Below, piece by piece: positions 21,523 through 53,586 of a DNA stretch of 64,000 nt. Origin of the DNA: Pleurostoma richardsiae. Lineage: Eukaryota > Ascomycota > Sordariomycetes > Calosphaeriales > Pleurostomataceae. The stretch's first letter is position 1; every line of letters starts with the position of its first letter. The notes under the pieces are model-generated. The model ran no database searches, had not been told where the DNA came from, and was given only the letters and a program-made list of their open reading frames with translations. Position numbers and translations under genes: made by a program. The stretch lies in contig JANBVO010000004.1 in NCBI GenBank assembly GCA_030052745.1, forward strand, positions 868,001 to 932,000, read 5' to 3'.

Positions 21523-23108
21523 ATGTCGTCCCTCCGTACCGGCCTCGCAGCCTGGCGCTGCACCTCTCGCTCCTCCTCCAGGCTCGTCACACCCTCCTCG
21601 CTACGACAGGCCCGTCCGTTCTCTGTGTCCAGCTCCAAGATGTCGTCCTTCTACCCATCATGGGAGCCCGAGGCCCCTACCGTCAAGACGGAGATCCCTG
21701 GCCCCAAGGCCAAGGAGGCCATCGCCGACCTGGACAAGGTCTTCGACACCAGGAGCTTGAACATGCTCACCGACTACCAGAAGAGCTCCGGCAACTACAT
21801 TGCCGACCCGGATGGCAATGTCCTGCTCGATGTGTAAGCACACATGTACACCCAGCTGCCTCTACAGAAGCACTAACCGACCTCCCGTACAGCTATGCCC
21901 AGATCGCCTCCATCCCCGTGGGGTACAATAACCCTTCGCTCATCAAGGCGGCCCAGAGCGATGACATGATCAATGCCATCATCAACCGTCCCGCCCTGGG
22001 TAACTTCCCCCCCAAGGACTGGGCCGACGTCCTCAGGACTGGCATTCTCAAGGTTGCCCCCAAGGGCCTGGACCAGGTCTTCACTGCCATGGCTGGCTCG
22101 GATGCCAACGAGACCGCCTACAAAGCCGCTTTTATGTGGCGGCGGCAGAAGGAGCGTGGTGGCCCCGGCGTCGAGTTCACCGAGGAGGAGATGGAGTCCG
22201 CCATGAACAACCAGGCCCCTGGCGCTTCGCAGCAGCTGTCCATCATGTCCTTCAGGACCGCCTTCCACGGCCGCCTCTTCGGCTCCCTGTCCACCACCCG
22301 CTCCAAGCCTATCCACAAGCTTGACATCCCCGCCTTCGACTGGCCCCAGGCTACCTTCCCAACCCTCAAGTACCCTCTTGAGGAGCACGCCGAGGAGAAT
22401 CGCAAGGCGGAGCAGGACGCCCTCGCCGAGGTCGAGCATCTCATCCTGAACTACCACATCCCCCCTTGCGCCGTCATCGTCGAGCCTATCCAGTCCGAGG
22501 GCGGCGACAACCATGCCTCGGCCGAGTTTTTCCGTGGCCTGCGCGCTCTGACCAAGAAGCACGGCGTTCTCATGATTGTTGACGAGGTGCAGACCGGTGT
22601 CGGCGCCACGGGCAAGTTCTGGGCGCACGAGCACTGGGACCTTCCCACGCCACCTGACATGGTGACCTTCTCCAAGAAGGCTCAGACCGCCGGCTACTAC
22701 TTTGGCAACCCGGAGCTGCGGCCCAACAAGCCCTACCGCCAGTTCAACACGTGGATGGGTGACCCGGCCCGCGCGCTGCTCTTCCGCGCCATCATCCAGG
22801 AGATCGAGAAGCTCGACCTTGTCTCCCACACCGCGCGTGTCGGCGACTACCTGTACGGCAAGATCGAGGCGCTCGCCAAGAAGTACCCGGGCGAGTTCCA
22901 GAACCTGCGCGGCAAGGGCATGGGCACCTTCATCGCCTTCGACAGCCCCCGCCGCGACGAGTTCCTGAAGAAGGCCAAGTCTCTGGGCGTCAACATCGGC
23001 GGGTCGGGCCAGAGCGCCGTGCGTCTGCGGCCCATGCTCATCTTTGAGGAGAAGCACGCCGATACCCTGGTTGATGTGATGGAGAAGATCGTCACGTCAT
23101 GGAAGTAA
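21523..23108 (+). CDS. gatA: 4-aminobutyrate aminotransferase (GABA transaminase), mitochondrial
   Basis: Model: 21523..21833, 21893..23108, 508 aa. This PLP-dependent class-III transaminase converts GABA plus 2-oxoglutarate to succinic semialdehyde plus glutamate in the GABA shunt. The first 40 residues are Arg/Ser-rich without acids (MSSLRTGLAAWRCTSRSSSR), a good mitochondrial presequence. The enzyme core begins around SFYPSWEPEAP. Recognisable blocks are SIPVGYNNP, INRPALGNFPP, FRTAFHGRLFGSL, AVIVEPIQSEGGD, VDEVQTGVGATG and TFSKKAQTAGYYF. The first lysine of that last block (K365) is the expected Schiff-base residue. The 59-bp intron has GTAAGC, CTAAC and GTACAG and joins LLDV to YAQIA. 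An internal ATG at codon 40 (MSSFYPS) could give a cytosolic form. The yeast equivalent is UGA1. Identification is near certain. Confidence 0.96.
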
Positions 23109-24720: not shown

Positions 24721-27700
24721 TTAGTGACTGAGAACTTCTCTCTTCCGAGCCTCATTCTCGTGAGGCTTCAACGTATCGCCGTCCTTGTTAGAATGTGGCG
24801 GGGCCATCTCGAGGTCGGCACCGTCAAGATCAAGCTTGGCCCTGCTCGTCAGGGAAGCCGCCTTCAAGCCCTCTCCATTGATGAACGGCTCCCCGTTAGT
24901 GGTTCCATTGCTATCGCTCACGCCAGCGAGCAGCTTCTTCTTCTGCTCCTGCTCTAGCTCAAAGTCCCGCATAGCCTCTTCATTCTCGCGCTGCAGTGCC
25001 TCCTCCTGAGCGATTCTATCTTTCTCAGCCTCGGCCGCGAGCCGTTGCGCTTCCTCATTCTCGCGGGCCCAGGCCTTCTCCTGCTCACGCAACGAATGGT
25101 CTTGCTCGTCCATAGCGGCTTCCGGCGGCGGCGGAGGCGGCGGAGGGCTAGGCGCATCGACTTCATCCTCCTTCAGGCGCTTGACGGACGGCGTCTCGGA
25201 GGGTGTCGCACTAGGCGACTCGACATCATCTTCCCTCTTGCGCTTTCGCTCTAAGCTGGTCGGGCTATCTTCCATGTCGCTCAAGAGGACGTCGTCAGCT
25301 GCCTCGGTAGTGTCCTCCTTGAGCGTATGTACCGGTAATGTCTCGGTCGTTACAACCTTGGCGTCGCTCTCAGAATACTTCATACCATTGGTAGCTTCAT
25401 GTCGTGCCGCACGTTCAGCCTTCCTCTTCTCATGAGCGGTGTACTTCTGCACTGCTCGGTCAAGGAAGTCCTTAACGTATTTCTTGACCTTCTTTTCTTG
25501 CTTAGCAGTGATAGAAGTCGGGTCGTCTACGCGATTGTTCTTGTAGTCCGAGGCGACTAGCTTCTTGTTGACCTCCTTGGCGAACTTCTTCAACTCCTCC
25601 TTAGGAAGCTTATGTCGGAACTTGTCCATGACATATCGGACGTGAGGGAACAGCTGCGATCCAGAGTCAGCTATGAGAGGTCTTGCAGGGTCGGCCAAAT
25701 GCTTTGCATGGATTGTCAAAGACTTACCGTGTTCTCGTAGATCTTCATTTGCTTTTCGATCGGAAGAAAACGCCACTTTTCCTTCTTTGGCTCCTGCGCG
25801 GGAGTCCCCACCGGCTGTGGTGTTTGCGAAGCCGACGCTCTCGGCGTGGGTTCCTTGGTTAGGCTATCGATAATGTCCTGCAGGGCTTTCTTATCCTGCA
25901 TGGCCTTCGACGGACCTTTCGGAGTGTCGACGACCGCGACAGTAGGCCGCTTCCAGGTGGTTGTTCCGCTCTTGTTGTAGTAGTAGGTGTTTCCCCGCGG
26001 GTCTGTGGCCGAAAACCATCCCGCTGGCAGGCCGCTGTTGCCGGCAAACTGAGGCCGTCGGTGCCGCTGCCCAGCATTGAAGTAATTTGGGTTGCGCTGG
26101 GGTACATTGCTGCGCGGGCCCTTTGGAATTACGACGTTGACGAAAGGCGAAGCTGGCTGTCTGGTGACGGCCTCTTCCTCGGAGCGGTCGAAATTGCGGC
26201 GTTCCTCGAATGAATTCGATATTGCCGTAACCGCAGCGGGGTCGAATTTCTTTCGGGGGATGCGGTAGGCTGTCTCAAGCTTACTCCACTCATCCAGGAG
26301 GCGCCTTGACTCGGCTGCTACATCCTCATGGTCAGAGGAGGCGAGATTCTCAATTGTCGTCTCGATCTTAGAGTCGGAGATCTTGTTTTTGGTCAATCGA
26401 GGGAATTTGTAGAGGATGTCGAGGACCTGAAGGACGACATTGTTGTCGTCGATGAAAGTGGTAAGTGCAGCCTTGAGAATCTGGTATCCGTGCATCCGCA
26501 CAACGCGGTTCCGCACGCGGTCGTCGTCGGCGTTCTGGATACGGTTCAGCAGCTTCACAGCGATCCATTTCTCCTTGCACTGCATGAGAGCAGCCATGAC
26601 TTTGGTGACGCCATCCTCATCGAGACCGCGCGGTTGTAGGCTGTTAACATACTCCTCGTCGTCCTCGGTGTGCTTCTTTTTGCGGGGTTTCTTAGCGACG
26701 ATCGTGTCCCAACCATCCCCGCCATCCTCAATGCCAAGCGCCTCGATCGTAGCAAGGGGCAATTTGGTGGCACGCTCGGTCTGGGTCTTGCCGCCGATAA
26801 ATCCTGTGCAGTTGGGCTCACCACAGTAGCATGGCTGCGGGTCGGCACCATACCGATCGACGTTGTAGTTGAACACCAACTCCTCGCCAGCCTTGACTCC
26901 GCGACTGGTGAAGATGCCCATGCGCAGCTTGTCCCCAACCACCCACTTGTCGACGTAGCAGTTAGGGTTACAGGAGTGGTTGCAGAAGCGGCCAAGATTG
27001 CCCTTCTTCGTAGCGTCCACAAACTCACTCTTGGTCAGCGACATGAAATAGAAGTGCTTGATGCCCTCTTCGTCGTACTGGATCATGCGGCGACGAAAGG
27101 TAGGCTCATTGATGACTTCGCCGATGTACTCGAAGACGAAGTCGTTGGCCTGCAGGTCGGCGTTGGCCCTAAGGCCAAAGCCCTTTTTCTCCGTCTTGAT
27201 GACAGAGACGTCCGCATATTGCTTCCTCTGGAATCGCTGGTTTTGGCATCCGAGTCCGCAGTTACAGTCACCATCGACACACTCCATTTTTGTCGCCCGG
27301 TTGATACAGTCAGAATCCTCTCCACAGGCGTTATTCATGCCGTCTCCTGCATGAGGACGATACTGTCAGTAAAATATAGCGGCGACAAAAGCAGCATGGC
27401 GAATCAGTGCTGGCGCAAATGTAGATTCCAACTTACGCCATTCTTCGGAACAATCGCAGTCCAGAGCATCATGCTCGGAGGAGCCCATATGCTTTGATCC
27501 ATACAGACAGTCTGTGATGACCTGAAATGTCTGGCATGACTGGGCCGTGACATCTGGGCTGTGGTCGAAAAGAGGCGGAGTGCGGCGAGCGGTTTTGGCA
27601 GACGATTTTCGCGATAATTTAGGTGCGGGTTCGGCCTCTGGGGTAGAGGTACTCTCGTTCTCGGCTTTGACTTGGTCTGGCGACATGCTGGGAGACCTTG

Positions 27701-34591: not shown

Positions 34592-37500
34592 TTACGCATA
34601 CTGGCTCCTATCCGTCCACCCAGGCTGCAGCGCGCTCCAGTCCCTGTTGAACCCAAAGTCTGTCTGGTACTTGCCGTACGCGAACAGCCTCGCCCCGTCG
34701 AGCCGGGCCCCCTCGTCCGTCTGCGCCCACAGGCTCAGCGCCAGCGTGTTGAGCCCGCGGTTGTTGACCACCCCCGGCGGCACCGGGAACCGCGTCTGCG
34801 GGCCCAGGTGCGGCACGAACTTGCCGTACTGGTAGCCGTTGACCCAGAGCATGGCGCGCGCGACGGTGCCCGCCGGCGCGGAGAGCTCGATCCCCAGCGG
34901 GACGTCCAGGTCGCTGTCGATGTTGAGGTGGAAGGTGGTGGTGTAGAAGCGCACGCCAGAGCGGTCGAGCCCGTCGAGCGGCGTGGTGGTGGAGGAGAAG
35001 CCGACGGCGGCGGAGGGGTCGAAGCCGGGCAGGTGCCAGCCGAGACGCTCGCCGTAGAGGCCGCCCTCGTTCATGGGCCCGCGGACGGGGTCGATGTTGG
35101 CGGCGCCGCCGGCGTTGCCCTGGATGCGCCACTCCCGGAAGCCCGTGGCGGTGGTGGAGGCGTTTCCGCCCGAAAAGACAAGCTGCGCCCCGAGGATGCC
35201 GCGCGGGTTCTCGACGCCCTTGGCAGTGGAGGTCTCGTCGTGGCCGTGGTAGTCCACCAGGACGGCCAGGACGTTGCCGGCGTCCTTGAGAGCCGAGGCG
35301 GGTAGGGCCAGCAAGGCGGTGGTCGTCGTCAGCGAGCCGTTGCCCGGGTCGCCGCCGACGAGGACGCCGTTCAGCCAGGCGTTCCAGCCGAAGCCCAGGC
35401 CGCCGCTGGCGGTGATGTTGACGGCCGTGGCCGCCGTGCCGTCGAAGTAACCGCGGTAAACCTTAGCGCCGACGTAGAAGCCGTAGTCGGAGCTAAAGAG
35501 AACAGGTAATGTCAAGGGCTTGACAGGGGAGAGGGTGCTGGTCTTGTTGCAGACCGCCCACTTTGAGTCATCATAGTCCGGCTGAGCCTCGGGGAGTGAG
35601 TCGGCGGAGTGCCATCTGTCGAGGGAAGGGAGCGTGATCACCCTTGAGTCGGCCCCCGGTATCTCAGCCGTATACGAGCCATAGACGGTCTTCTTCGCAG
35701 CGATCCGGATGCCGTTCCAGACGATCGTCTCAATTGGCGAAGAACCGACATACACCTCAATGGTAGTCGAGTTGGTGTTATCGCCCGAGACATGGAGCAC
35801 CTGGTGGCTAATGTAGGCGCTCCGGACCAAGTAAGGCCCTAGGATGAAGAACTTCTGGTCCGGGGCAACATAAGGGTACGAGCTGGTTGACGGCGCCCAG
35901 AACCTCCATGCAGTCGGCTGGTCGAGTAAGTAGAGAAGTACACCGTTCGAGAATTTGACAACGGTTGACCCGGCCGCCTGAGTGTACGTAAAGACCTGCC
36001 GGCCGTTCTCGTCGGATGTGGTAACCGCCGAGTTACCGTAGACGGTGTACGTCAGGTTTGTTTCGCCCTTGAAAGCGAACTCGCCAACCTGACCTTCCTT
36101 GAGATAGAACACAAGCGCGTCGACATCGAAGATTCCATTTGTGAGTATGTCCGGAGAAGCGTACAGGAGGGTGTGGTCTCCAAAGCCGTAGTCTGTGACA
36201 AGGATCCTGCTCTGTCGCCCAAGCAGCGAGACGTCCGGGACGGTCACGGGACCTTCGCTTGTGGTGAGATCCGCAGAGAATGAGACGTCAGAAGTAGACC
36301 TGGTATTGCTCTGCTGGGTCACCGTAAAGGTGGCGTCGGTGTCTGGATTCTTCAAGAGCCAAGTCCAAACGGAGTCAGATGACACCTTTTGCGCTGTTAG
36401 TTTCACCCTCAAAGACGGTCCCTGGTCGACTTACCTGATAGCCTGTTCCGTTTCCGACCATCTCGGTTACTAGGAGGTCGGGTGACGAGGCAGCGAACAT
36501 GTTGACCAGCTTTGTCTGAAATAGCTTGTCCCATTGCTCCCGAGTCTCCCTCAGCGGTGCACTGCATGATGGAACTTAGCAAGTGTCTCCAAACTTCACT
36601 GAATACTTGGCGGACAAACCTATAGTCGTAACTGGTGTAGACCACGGGCGCTGCGGCTGTGTAGTCGAACTGTCAATTACTCATCTTCGGTCACCCAGGA
36701 GAGTGCTGTACGTACAATGACCCCAGTTTGTCCCTCCGTACGTCATGTAGAAGTTCTGCATAGTTACGCGCTGGCCAATATTGTTCTTGTAGTAAACATC
36801 AGCGAACGCCGGATCATGCTCAGTGGTGCACTATTCAAGGCGTCAGCGGCAATGCAGTCATGATAGTTGGTATCAGTGATCTCGACCTGATCATAGAAGG
36901 TCCCGCCTCCCCAGGCAGAGAACCAGCCCCCCTCAAACTCGGGGAGATAGCTCGGCTGTGTGTACGAGTAGTTGGAGAACCACTGATAGTAGGTGCGGAC
37001 CACACTGAAGCCGGTCGACGGGTTGGTACACGATAGCCCTCCTGGATATGAGTCCAGCCCGTACACATTGACACTGCCGCCTACGTCCTCGTAGTCGGTA
37101 GACCAGGACTGAGATCGCATACCCTTCTCGTTGTGGGTAAAGGGTACGACAACCCCTGCGTCCCGGAATGCGGCTTTGATCTGCTCCATGTACTTGACGA
37201 GGGTATTATCGGCAGAGTGGACCGTCTCCTGAAGCTCGTTCTCGATCTGATTAAGGATGACAGGCTAGGCGGAGAGCAGTTCAGCTCTGTCGGTTGGTAT
37301 AAGGGAGTGTTGCTCGATGGAAGTGACTTACGCCTCCGTTTGTGATCTGGTTGGCTGCGATGATCTTGCCAATGGCTGTGACCCAGGGGAGCCAGGCTTG
37401 GTAATAGGTGTCATCGCTGGTTCGCAAGTTGCCAAGGCTTCCGTCAGATCCCCAAAGCGCGAAGCCCCCTCCATTTGTCTCTGCCTTGATGAATATCAGC

Positions 37501-51402: not shown

Positions 51403-53586
51403 ATGGCTCTGCCTTGGACTTCCCGGACCGTGCCTCGCCTCCTCCGGCGTGGCTGCCGTGATTCTGCAAGCACCCGTCCGTGGAGGGGCGTAGCAACAAC
51501 TGGACTAGCTGAGGAGCGGCCGTCATGGAGCAGCGCAGAGGACGACGTGGCGGCCGCATCTGCGTCTCGCCCATCTCGTCGAGATGCCATCCGGAACGCC
51601 AAGCCCTTTTCGCACTTCCTGACCGACACCTTCAGCCGGCAGCATGACTACCTTCGCATCTCGCTTACAGAGAAGTGCAACCTCCGCTGCCTCTACTGCA
51701 TGCCTGAAGAAGGTGTGCCTCTGTACCCACCCCGGGAGCTTCTGACCACTCCAGAGATCGTCCTGCTCTCCTCTGTCTTCGTGTCACAAGGGGTGACCAA
51801 GATCCGCCTCACGGGTGGCGAGCCGACCGTGCGGCGTGATATCCTGCCCTTGATGCAGCAGATCGGAGCCCTACGGCCGCACGGCCTACGCGAGCTTTGC
51901 CTGACTACCAATGGTCTTGCTCTGCACCGCAAACTGGAGCCTATGGTCGAGGCCGGCTTGACAGGGGTGAACCTCAGTCTGGACACCCTCGACCCTTGGC
52001 AGTTCCAGATCATGACGCGGCGCAAAGGCTTCGAGGCGGTGCAGAAGAGCATACAGCGCATCTTCGAGCTAAACAAAGCCGGCGCCGGCATCAAGTTCAA
52101 GATCAACTGCGTTGTCATGCGTGGCATCAACGACCGCGAGATCATCCCGTTCGTCGAGATGACTCGCGACCGTGACGTGGAGGTACGATTCATAGAGTAC
52201 ATGCCCTTCGACGGCAACAAGTGGAGCGAGGGGAAGATGCTCAGCTACCAAGAAATGCTGGACGTGATCCGCGGACGGTACCCAGAGCTGCAGAAGGTCC
52301 AGGGCCACAGAAACGACACCAGCAAGACGTGGCACATCCCAGGATTCGCCGGAAAGATCGGCTTCATCACCAGCATGACACACAACTTCTGCGGCACCTG
52401 CAACCGCCTGCGAATCACGAGCGACGGCAACCTAAAGGTTTGCCTCTTCGGCAATGCTGAGGTGTCACTGCGCGATGTCCTGAGGAAGGCGAATGGCGGT
52501 GAACCCATCGACGAGGCGGCTTACGAGGAGATGAGGAAGCTCGCCATCGACCGGGCTCAGGGGCTGGCTGCCTCAGGCAAGCCCCTGACTCTGGCGCCGA
52601 ATTCTGAGGAGCTCCTCGAGATCATAGGCGTGGCAGTAAAGGGGAAGAAGGAAAAGCACGCAGGTATTGGCGAGCTAGAGCACATGAAGAACCGGCCTAT
52701 GATTTTGATAGGTGGGTAGTAGTCCCTCCCCTTTTCCTTTATGAAGGGCTCTGGGCAGTATAGCTGTTTCATCGGGCGGAGTCTCAGCGTTTTGGCCACG
52801 CTATGATTGGATATGTTTTCGTATTGTTCGGGGAGCACATAGGACTTGTTGCTAAGCATGTATATAGATTCGCGGTCTTTGGTGCATCAAAACACAAGCG
52901 GAATTCAGTGGACACGCACCGGGCTCGCCTCTCCTCCGTCTCCCCGTAACCTGCCACTCTCTTCCCCATATGGTCCTGCGGTCTTCCAGTCTGCCCGTCT
53001 CTTCTCCTCCCTCAGCCGCCCGCTCCGCGCCCCCGGAGGAGACCGCAGCAGCGGCTCACCGGACCCGCCCGAGAAGCTGACCCACCTATCGCCCAGCGGC
53101 ACCGCGCACATGGTCTCCATCTCGGAGAAGTCGCCGACGGCGCGCACCGCCAGGGCCGCCTGCAGCGTCGTCTTTTCCAGCCCGCTGCCGCTGCGCCTCA
53201 TCCGCGAGAACGCCGTCAAGAAGGGCGACGTGCTGGGCGTGGCGCGCGTCGCGGGCATCATGGCCGCCAAGCGCACGCCCGACCTCATCCCGCTGTGCCA
53301 CCCCGTCGCCATCACCCACGTGAGCGTCGACCTGGAGCCCGTGGGCGGCAGCAGCAGCAGCGAGGAGGGGGAGGGAGACTGGCGGGTCGATATCGCGGCC
53401 ACGGTGTCGTGCGAGGGCAAGACGGGCGTCGAGATGGAGGCGCTCACGGCGGCGGGAGCGGCGGCGTTGACGGTATATGATATGTGCAAGGCCGTGGACA
53501 AGGGCATGCGGGTTGAGGGGCTGAGGGTCGTGCTGAAGGAAGGTGGGAAGAGTGGGCGGTGGGTGGAGGGGATGAAGGCGGATTAG
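51403..53586 (+). CDS. cnxABC: Molybdenum cofactor biosynthesis protein, MoaA + MoaC (MOCS1 / cnxABC)
   Basis: Fusion model: 51403..52711, 52868..53586, 675 aa; the unspliced reading stops at 52717-52719 (438 aa). The gene covers conversion of GTP to cyclic pyranopterin monophosphate, the first step of molybdopterin synthesis, in mitochondria. The MoaA part is a radical-SAM enzyme: Arg-rich presequence, N-terminal cluster C92-x3-C96-x2-C99 (CNLRCLYC), the RLTGGEPTVR block, and C-terminal cluster C330-x2-C333-x13-C347. It ends in Gly-Gly-stop, the functional end in this family. The MoaC part has LIPLCHPVAITH and ALTAAGAAALTVYDM. The 156-bp intron G|GTGGGT ... GCTAAGCATGTATATAG removes exactly the Gly-Gly and the stop and keeps frame. 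A second presequence-like stretch (FQSARLFSSLSRPLR) lies between the domains, suggesting mitochondrial processing. Identification is near certain; which mRNA forms exist is inference. Confidence 0.95.

What the first reader, a model, noticed from the sequence alone, without database searches (positions are those of the whole stretch)
52701..52870. Splice donor sits exactly on the Gly-Gly-stop of MoaA: either/or MOCS1 products in a fungus
Seen: the MoaA frame ends ATA GGT GGG TAG. A donor G|GTGGGT at 52712 and acceptor TATATAG at 52867 remove both glycines and the stop and keep frame into MoaC (1309 + 719 bases = 676 codons). Known: in animal MOCS1 the C-terminal double glycine is essential for MOCS1A, and alternative splicing that removes it yields a MOCS1A-B fusion supplying MOCS1B. 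Inference: this fungus makes active MoaA from unspliced RNA and MoaC from spliced RNA, with a built-in ratio switch.
Basis: partly seen in the sequence, partly recalled or inferred. Interest (0 to 1): 0.75.

Follow-up and report, generated by a model that had tools for sequence, protein, structure and literature searches.

The report
Fungal nit-7-like gene with predicted intron
A fungal gene for the first step of molybdenum-cofactor synthesis carries one removable intron that most likely decides whether its RNA makes enzyme A alone or an A-B fusion; the same arrangement has already been worked out in the bread mould Neurospora, so this looks like a new example of a known device.

Summary
A 438-codon MoaA frame (51403-52719) ends Ile-Gly-Gly-stop. 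A possible 156-base GT-AG intron (52712-52867) would remove both glycines and the stop and join the frame to MoaC (675 residues). Gly-Gly is the old MoaA end: 80 of 80 bacterial relatives kept (of 485 found) end the same way. Of 12 in-frame GT-AG fusions counted, 52712/52867 alone has a GTRNG donor, CTRA branch site and YAG acceptor; about 1% by chance. One MoaC and one Mob_synth_C match were found in the genome, both here. The mechanism is not new: N. crassa nit-7 has one intron holding the double glycine; unspliced RNA gives NIT-7A, spliced RNA gives NIT-7AB, from which NIT-7B is released; nitrate raises the unspliced form (PMC7232280). No RNA and no other fungal sequence was examined, and my splice-site models did not pick this intron out by themselves. 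A presequence-like linker segment and an in-frame ATG inside the intron may differ from Neurospora; predictions only. New member of a known kind, low interest.

The parts
51403..52719 (+). MoaA (GTP 3',8-cyclase) frame, 438 aa, product of the unspliced RNA
   Evidence: TIGR02666 moaA 341 bits over cut-off 284; Radical_SAM and Mob_synth_C
51406..51459 (+). N-terminal presequence-like stretch (residues 2-19), highest hydrophobic moment of the 658 18-mers of the fusion, net charge +5, no acid
51403..52711 (+). exon 1 (1309 bases, phase 1)
52711..52719 (+). GGT GGG TAG, Gly-Gly-stop of MoaA, overlapping the donor
   Evidence: homologous end in 80 of 80 kept bacterial relatives
52712..52867 (+). 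predicted intron, 156 bases, GTGGGT...TATATAG, removes Gly-Gly-stop and keeps frame
   Evidence: composition differs from exons (GC 0.48, T 0.34); splicing itself not observed
52852..52856 (+). candidate branch site CTAAG (last base off the CTRAC pattern)
52858..52860 (+). ATG inside the predicted intron, in the MoaC frame, A at -3
52868..53586 (+). exon 2: linker plus MoaC
52975..53028 (+). presequence-like segment in the linker (fusion residues 473-490)
   Evidence: inference only
53077..53553 (+). MoaC (cPMP synthase) domain
   Evidence: TIGR00581 180.9 bits, cut-off 141.5; PF01967 174.7 bits

Best explanation
This is the fungal nit-7/MOCS1 gene. RNA that keeps intron 52712-52867 is translated to MoaA ending in the functional Gly-Gly. 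RNA that loses it is translated to a MoaA-MoaC fusion whose A half lacks Gly-Gly, which is carried into the mitochondrion by the A half's N-terminal presequence and cleaved to release MoaC. The splice ratio thus sets the A:C supply. Shown here: the frames, the domains, one match each in the genome, splice-compatible sequence. Inferred from N. crassa nit-7: both RNAs, import, cleavage, nitrate response.
For: Exact anatomy; domain hits; Gly-Gly end in 80 of 80 kept bacterial relatives; one MoaC and one Mob_synth_C match in the genome, both here, so this locus is the only source found for both enzymes; one MoaE and three Oxidored_molyb matches point to a pathway in use; of 12 in-frame GT-AG fusions the only one with donor, branch and acceptor motifs; N. 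crassa nit-7 has the same single-intron plan, and its intron start 1460 gives the same phase 1 if numbered from the ATG (my assumption), with experiments behind the model.
Against: No RNA evidence. The first 75 bases of exon 2 score as non-coding in my hexamer model (-9.9), and linker openness is expected by chance. The junction intron was not among the candidates of my own intron searches, which that score explains; in the poor model its acceptor ranked 1 of 142 (lowest) and its donor 71 of 142. No second fungal sequence was available to align.
Confidence: 0.85

Rival explanations
1. Two separate or bicistronic cistrons: MoaA ends at 52719 and MoaC is translated on its own from ATG 52858, either by re-initiation on the unspliced RNA or from its own promoter; the intron is not used.
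For: ATG 52858 is in the MoaC frame with A at -3; the linker has a presequence-like segment; the start of exon 2 scores non-coding. PMC7232280 says a bicistronic transcript was discussed for A. nidulans cnxABC.
Against: In N. [quoted passage not shown] ATGs at 52741, 52803 and 52813 lie between the stop and 52858, which disfavours simple re-initiation. A frame-joining intron with donor, branch and acceptor motifs exists.
Confidence: 0.08
2. Constitutive splicing: nearly all RNA is spliced and one bifunctional fusion protein does both reactions; Gly-Gly-stop in the intron is a relic.
For: The fusion frame is intact.
Against: It would leave no MoaA with Gly-Gly from the one Mob_synth_C match found, yet the Gly-Gly end is kept in register with bacteria. 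The N. crassa work found separate A and B needed.
Confidence: 0.05

Closest known systems
Neurospora crassa nit-7 (NIT-7A / NIT-7AB), PMC7232280
   Same: One gene, two exons, a single intron that encodes the double glycine and holds the stop of the A protein; spliced RNA fuses A to B; same intron phase if the paper numbers from the ATG (my assumption)
   Different: N. crassa intron 237 bases (1460-1696) and, by the same numbering, exon 1 of 1459 bases, against 156 and 1309 here; N. crassa has a second donor 9 bases downstream, while here there is no GT at +9 (nearest 52722, +10); an N. crassa NIT-7AB without its N-terminal signal stayed in the cytosol, while the linker here is presequence-like (untested)
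Human MOCS1 (MOCS1A / MOCS1AB), PMC9607355
   Same: Alternative splicing at the A/B junction gives MOCS1A or a MOCS1AB fusion that is cleaved to release MOCS1B; internal targeting motif upstream of the B domain (passages)
   Different: Ten exons with alternative splicing in exon 9 and exon 1, not simple retention of one intron
Aspergillus nidulans cnxABC
   Same: Homologue of nit-7 carrying both catalytic domains (as cited in PMC7232280)
   Different: Discussed there as a bicistronic transcript; sequence not available here

Membership tests
nit-7/MOCS1-type MoaA-MoaC gene | complete MoaA (radical SAM plus Mob_synth_C) | tested here: met
nit-7/MOCS1-type MoaA-MoaC gene | complete MoaC downstream on the same strand, joinable in frame | tested here: met
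nit-7/MOCS1-type MoaA-MoaC gene | A frame ends in Gly-Gly-stop | tested here: met
nit-7/MOCS1-type MoaA-MoaC gene | splice donor upstream of the stop so that splicing removes Gly-Gly | tested here: inconclusive
   met at sequence level, but use of the donor was not observed and my intron searches did not list it
nit-7/MOCS1-type MoaA-MoaC gene | both RNA forms exist and their ratio changes with nitrate | not testable with these tools
   no RNA data held
nit-7/MOCS1-type MoaA-MoaC gene | orthology to N. crassa nit-7 by sequence alignment | not testable with these tools
nit-7 (mitochondrial A protein) | N-terminal presequence on the A protein | tested here: inconclusive
   residues 2-19 have the highest hydrophobic moment, net charge +5, no acid; no trained predictor was run

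The most novel reading that the evidence does not exclude
In this fungus MoaC may reach the mitochondrion by a second route: the linker's presequence-like segment (52975-53028), and possibly the ATG at 52858 inside the intron, would let MoaC be imported without the A half, as reported for human MOCS1B but not found for N. crassa NIT-7B.
Probability: 0.12. Interest if true: 0.4.

Novelty: new member of a known kind. Interest (0 to 1): 0.2.

Why it matters
It adds, at sequence level, another fungal case of an intron that would decide between active MoaA and a MoaC-delivering fusion, with a different intron length from Neurospora. If RNA confirms it, retention of this intron would be a control point for molybdenum-cofactor supply in more than one fungus rather than a Neurospora peculiarity.

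Tried and rejected
Splice-site models. Two rounds of expectation-maximisation on GT-AG pairs in 264 kb (window plus L002-L021) did not give a clear intron signal and were dropped. In one search the acceptor at 52867 ranked 1 of 142 (lowest) and the donor 71 of 142; I give that model no weight because it had mostly learned excisions of coding sequence, but it is told here because it goes against the reading. A looser filter mixed true and false introns. The motif filter gave 26 candidates, against 6, 8, 10, 12 and 20 for five decoy donors and 8, 8 and 13 for three decoy acceptors, so it is contaminated. The junction intron was not itself a candidate; the low coding score of the start of exon 2 explains it. 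That it looks weak and long fits a retainable intron but proves nothing.

Fungal relatives. A viral-contig scan with MoaA found none. The genome-contig scan gave records of bacteria (80 kept of 485). Two papers on MOCS1 splicing were not held. Literature listings seen: 2 of 2; 20 of 63; 20 of 223; 4 of 4; 3 of 3; 12 of 68; by title and start of abstract, PMC7232280 was the only listed paper about this splicing in a fungus. These searches cover open-licence PMC only. In PMC9370521 I saw passages; nit-7 occurs there once, in the reference list. The original report of the two nit-7 forms (Probst 2014) was seen only as a reference in PMC7232280.

Considered and rejected: linker openness as evidence for translation (expected by chance); stop-codon readthrough (no reason to invoke it when a GT-AG intron is possible; not tested).

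Full report
Observation. The window lies in a 39.4 Mb genome of 136 contigs. A frame with AWS, SET, Med26-like and WW domains, a multi-domain beta-galactosidase frame and candidate spliceosomal introns in sampled sequence mark it as eukaryotic and fungus-like; the species was not identified. The MoaA frame 51403-52719 has 438 codons and ends ATA GGT GGG TAG. The donor G|GTGGGT starts at 52712, the acceptor TATATAG ends at 52867; the intron is 156 bases, exon 1 is 1309 and exon 2 is 719 bases, and the joined frame reads 675 residues with no internal stop.

Domains. MoaA matches TIGR02666 (341 bits, cut-off 284) and the Pfam radical SAM and Mob_synth_C families; MoaC matches TIGR00581 (180.9 bits, cut-off 141.5) and PF01967. 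The best solved relatives are the MoaA structure 1tv7 (aligned only as far as residue 353) and MoaC structures led by 4fdf. The genome gave one MoaC match and one Mob_synth_C match, both at this locus, one MoaE match and three Oxidored_molyb matches. So this locus is the only source found for either enzyme, in an organism that appears to have users for the cofactor.

The Gly-Gly end. A genome-contig scan found 485 relatives, of which the tool kept the best 80, all from bacterial records. Read to their stops, 75 of 80 end in Gly-Gly directly; the other 5 opened on an early stop, taken to lie upstream of the start codon, and their next open stretch also ends in Gly-Gly. So 80 of 80, with ends like NRSMITIGG beside NRPMILIGG here. 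The stop at 52717 is therefore the old MoaA end and not an accidental stop in a fusion.

Chance. Counting donors at 52601-52720, acceptors at about 52741-53042 and lengths of 45-300 bases, 12 GT-AG pairs would fuse the frames; one alone (52712/52867) has GTRNG, a CTRA branch site and YAG, and one more (52664/52867) has the last two without the donor pattern. The GT needs GGT as first glycine codon (295 of 1,835, 16%), and 7.5% of 2,000 dinucleotide shuffles of 52720-52950 give an in-frame CTRA...YAG acceptor. If independent this is about 1%. The intron is poorer in GC and richer in T (0.48, 0.34) than exon 1 (0.60, 0.18). Against: the open linker is expected by chance (48% of 3,000 shuffles; 20% for the longer stretch from 52843), and the first 75 bases of exon 2 score as non-coding (-9.9).

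Strength of the sites. My attempts to learn splice sites from 264 kb largely failed. The motif-filtered set of 26 candidates (donor decoys gave 6 to 20) has donors such as GTAAGT, GTACGT and GTGAGT and branch sites CTRAC. The junction intron was not itself among these candidates, since the start of exon 2 scores as non-coding. Compared with the set it is long, its +4 G is found in 3 of 26 and its branch-site last base G in 1 of 26. A weak intron is what regulated retention would need, but the set is too small and impure to carry weight.

What is known. PMC7232280 (I read parts 1-4 of 6 of the text and passages including figure legends) describes N. crassa nit-7: two exons around one intron that encodes the functional double glycine; unspliced RNA gives NIT-7A, RNA lacking 1460-1696 gives NIT-7AB; a third form lacks 1469-1696 and is not essential; among the Moco genes measured only the unspliced form rises significantly under nitrate-inducing conditions; NIT-7A plus NIT-7AB are needed; NIT-7AB is imported and NIT-7B released in mitochondria. 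That is the mechanism proposed for this window. If the paper numbers from the ATG (my assumption), its intron starts in phase 1 as here. A review of human deficiency (PMC9607355, passages) gives the human parallel and an internal targeting motif before MOCS1B, with cleavage after import; PMC7232280 describes the human cleavage as cytosolic. The two differ and I could not read the original. Intron and exon lengths differ from N. crassa, so this is not the N. crassa gene itself.

What may differ. The linker has a 57-residue acid-free run (438-494) holding, after the N-terminus, the highest hydrophobic moments among the 47 acid-free 18-mers with net charge +2 or more. ATG 52858 lies in the MoaC frame inside the intron, nine bases before the acceptor's last base. 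N. crassa NIT-7AB without its N-terminal signal stayed in the cytosol and NIT-7B alone was not mitochondrial, so if this segment works as an import signal the present fungus would resemble humans in this point. No trained predictor or experiment was available, hence a probability of 0.12.

Verdict.

Noticed in passing
window 52858-52860: An ATG in the MoaC frame lies inside the predicted intron just before the acceptor; unspliced RNA could in principle give a free MoaC of 242 residues.
   Followed up: partly
window 52975-53028: The MoaA-MoaC linker carries a mitochondrial-presequence-like stretch (no acids, net +3, hydrophobic moment in the top 3% of 18-mers of the fusion).
   Followed up: partly
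window 25719-27338 (- strand): Frame with AWS, SET, Med26-like and WW domains, the make-up of a SET2-type histone methyltransferase (name recalled; domains).
   Followed up: no
window 34595-36412 (- strand): Beta-galactosidase domains 2, 3 and ABD2 in one frame.
   Followed up: no
window 21660-23105 (+ strand): Class-III aminotransferase, 482 aa in one open frame.
   Followed up: no
N. crassa nit-7 as described in PMC7232280: If numbered from the ATG and if Gly-Gly-stop follows directly as here, the third published form (lacking 1469-1696) would keep the Gly-Gly-stop and so also encode NIT-7A; this is my inference, not the paper's statement.
   Followed up: no
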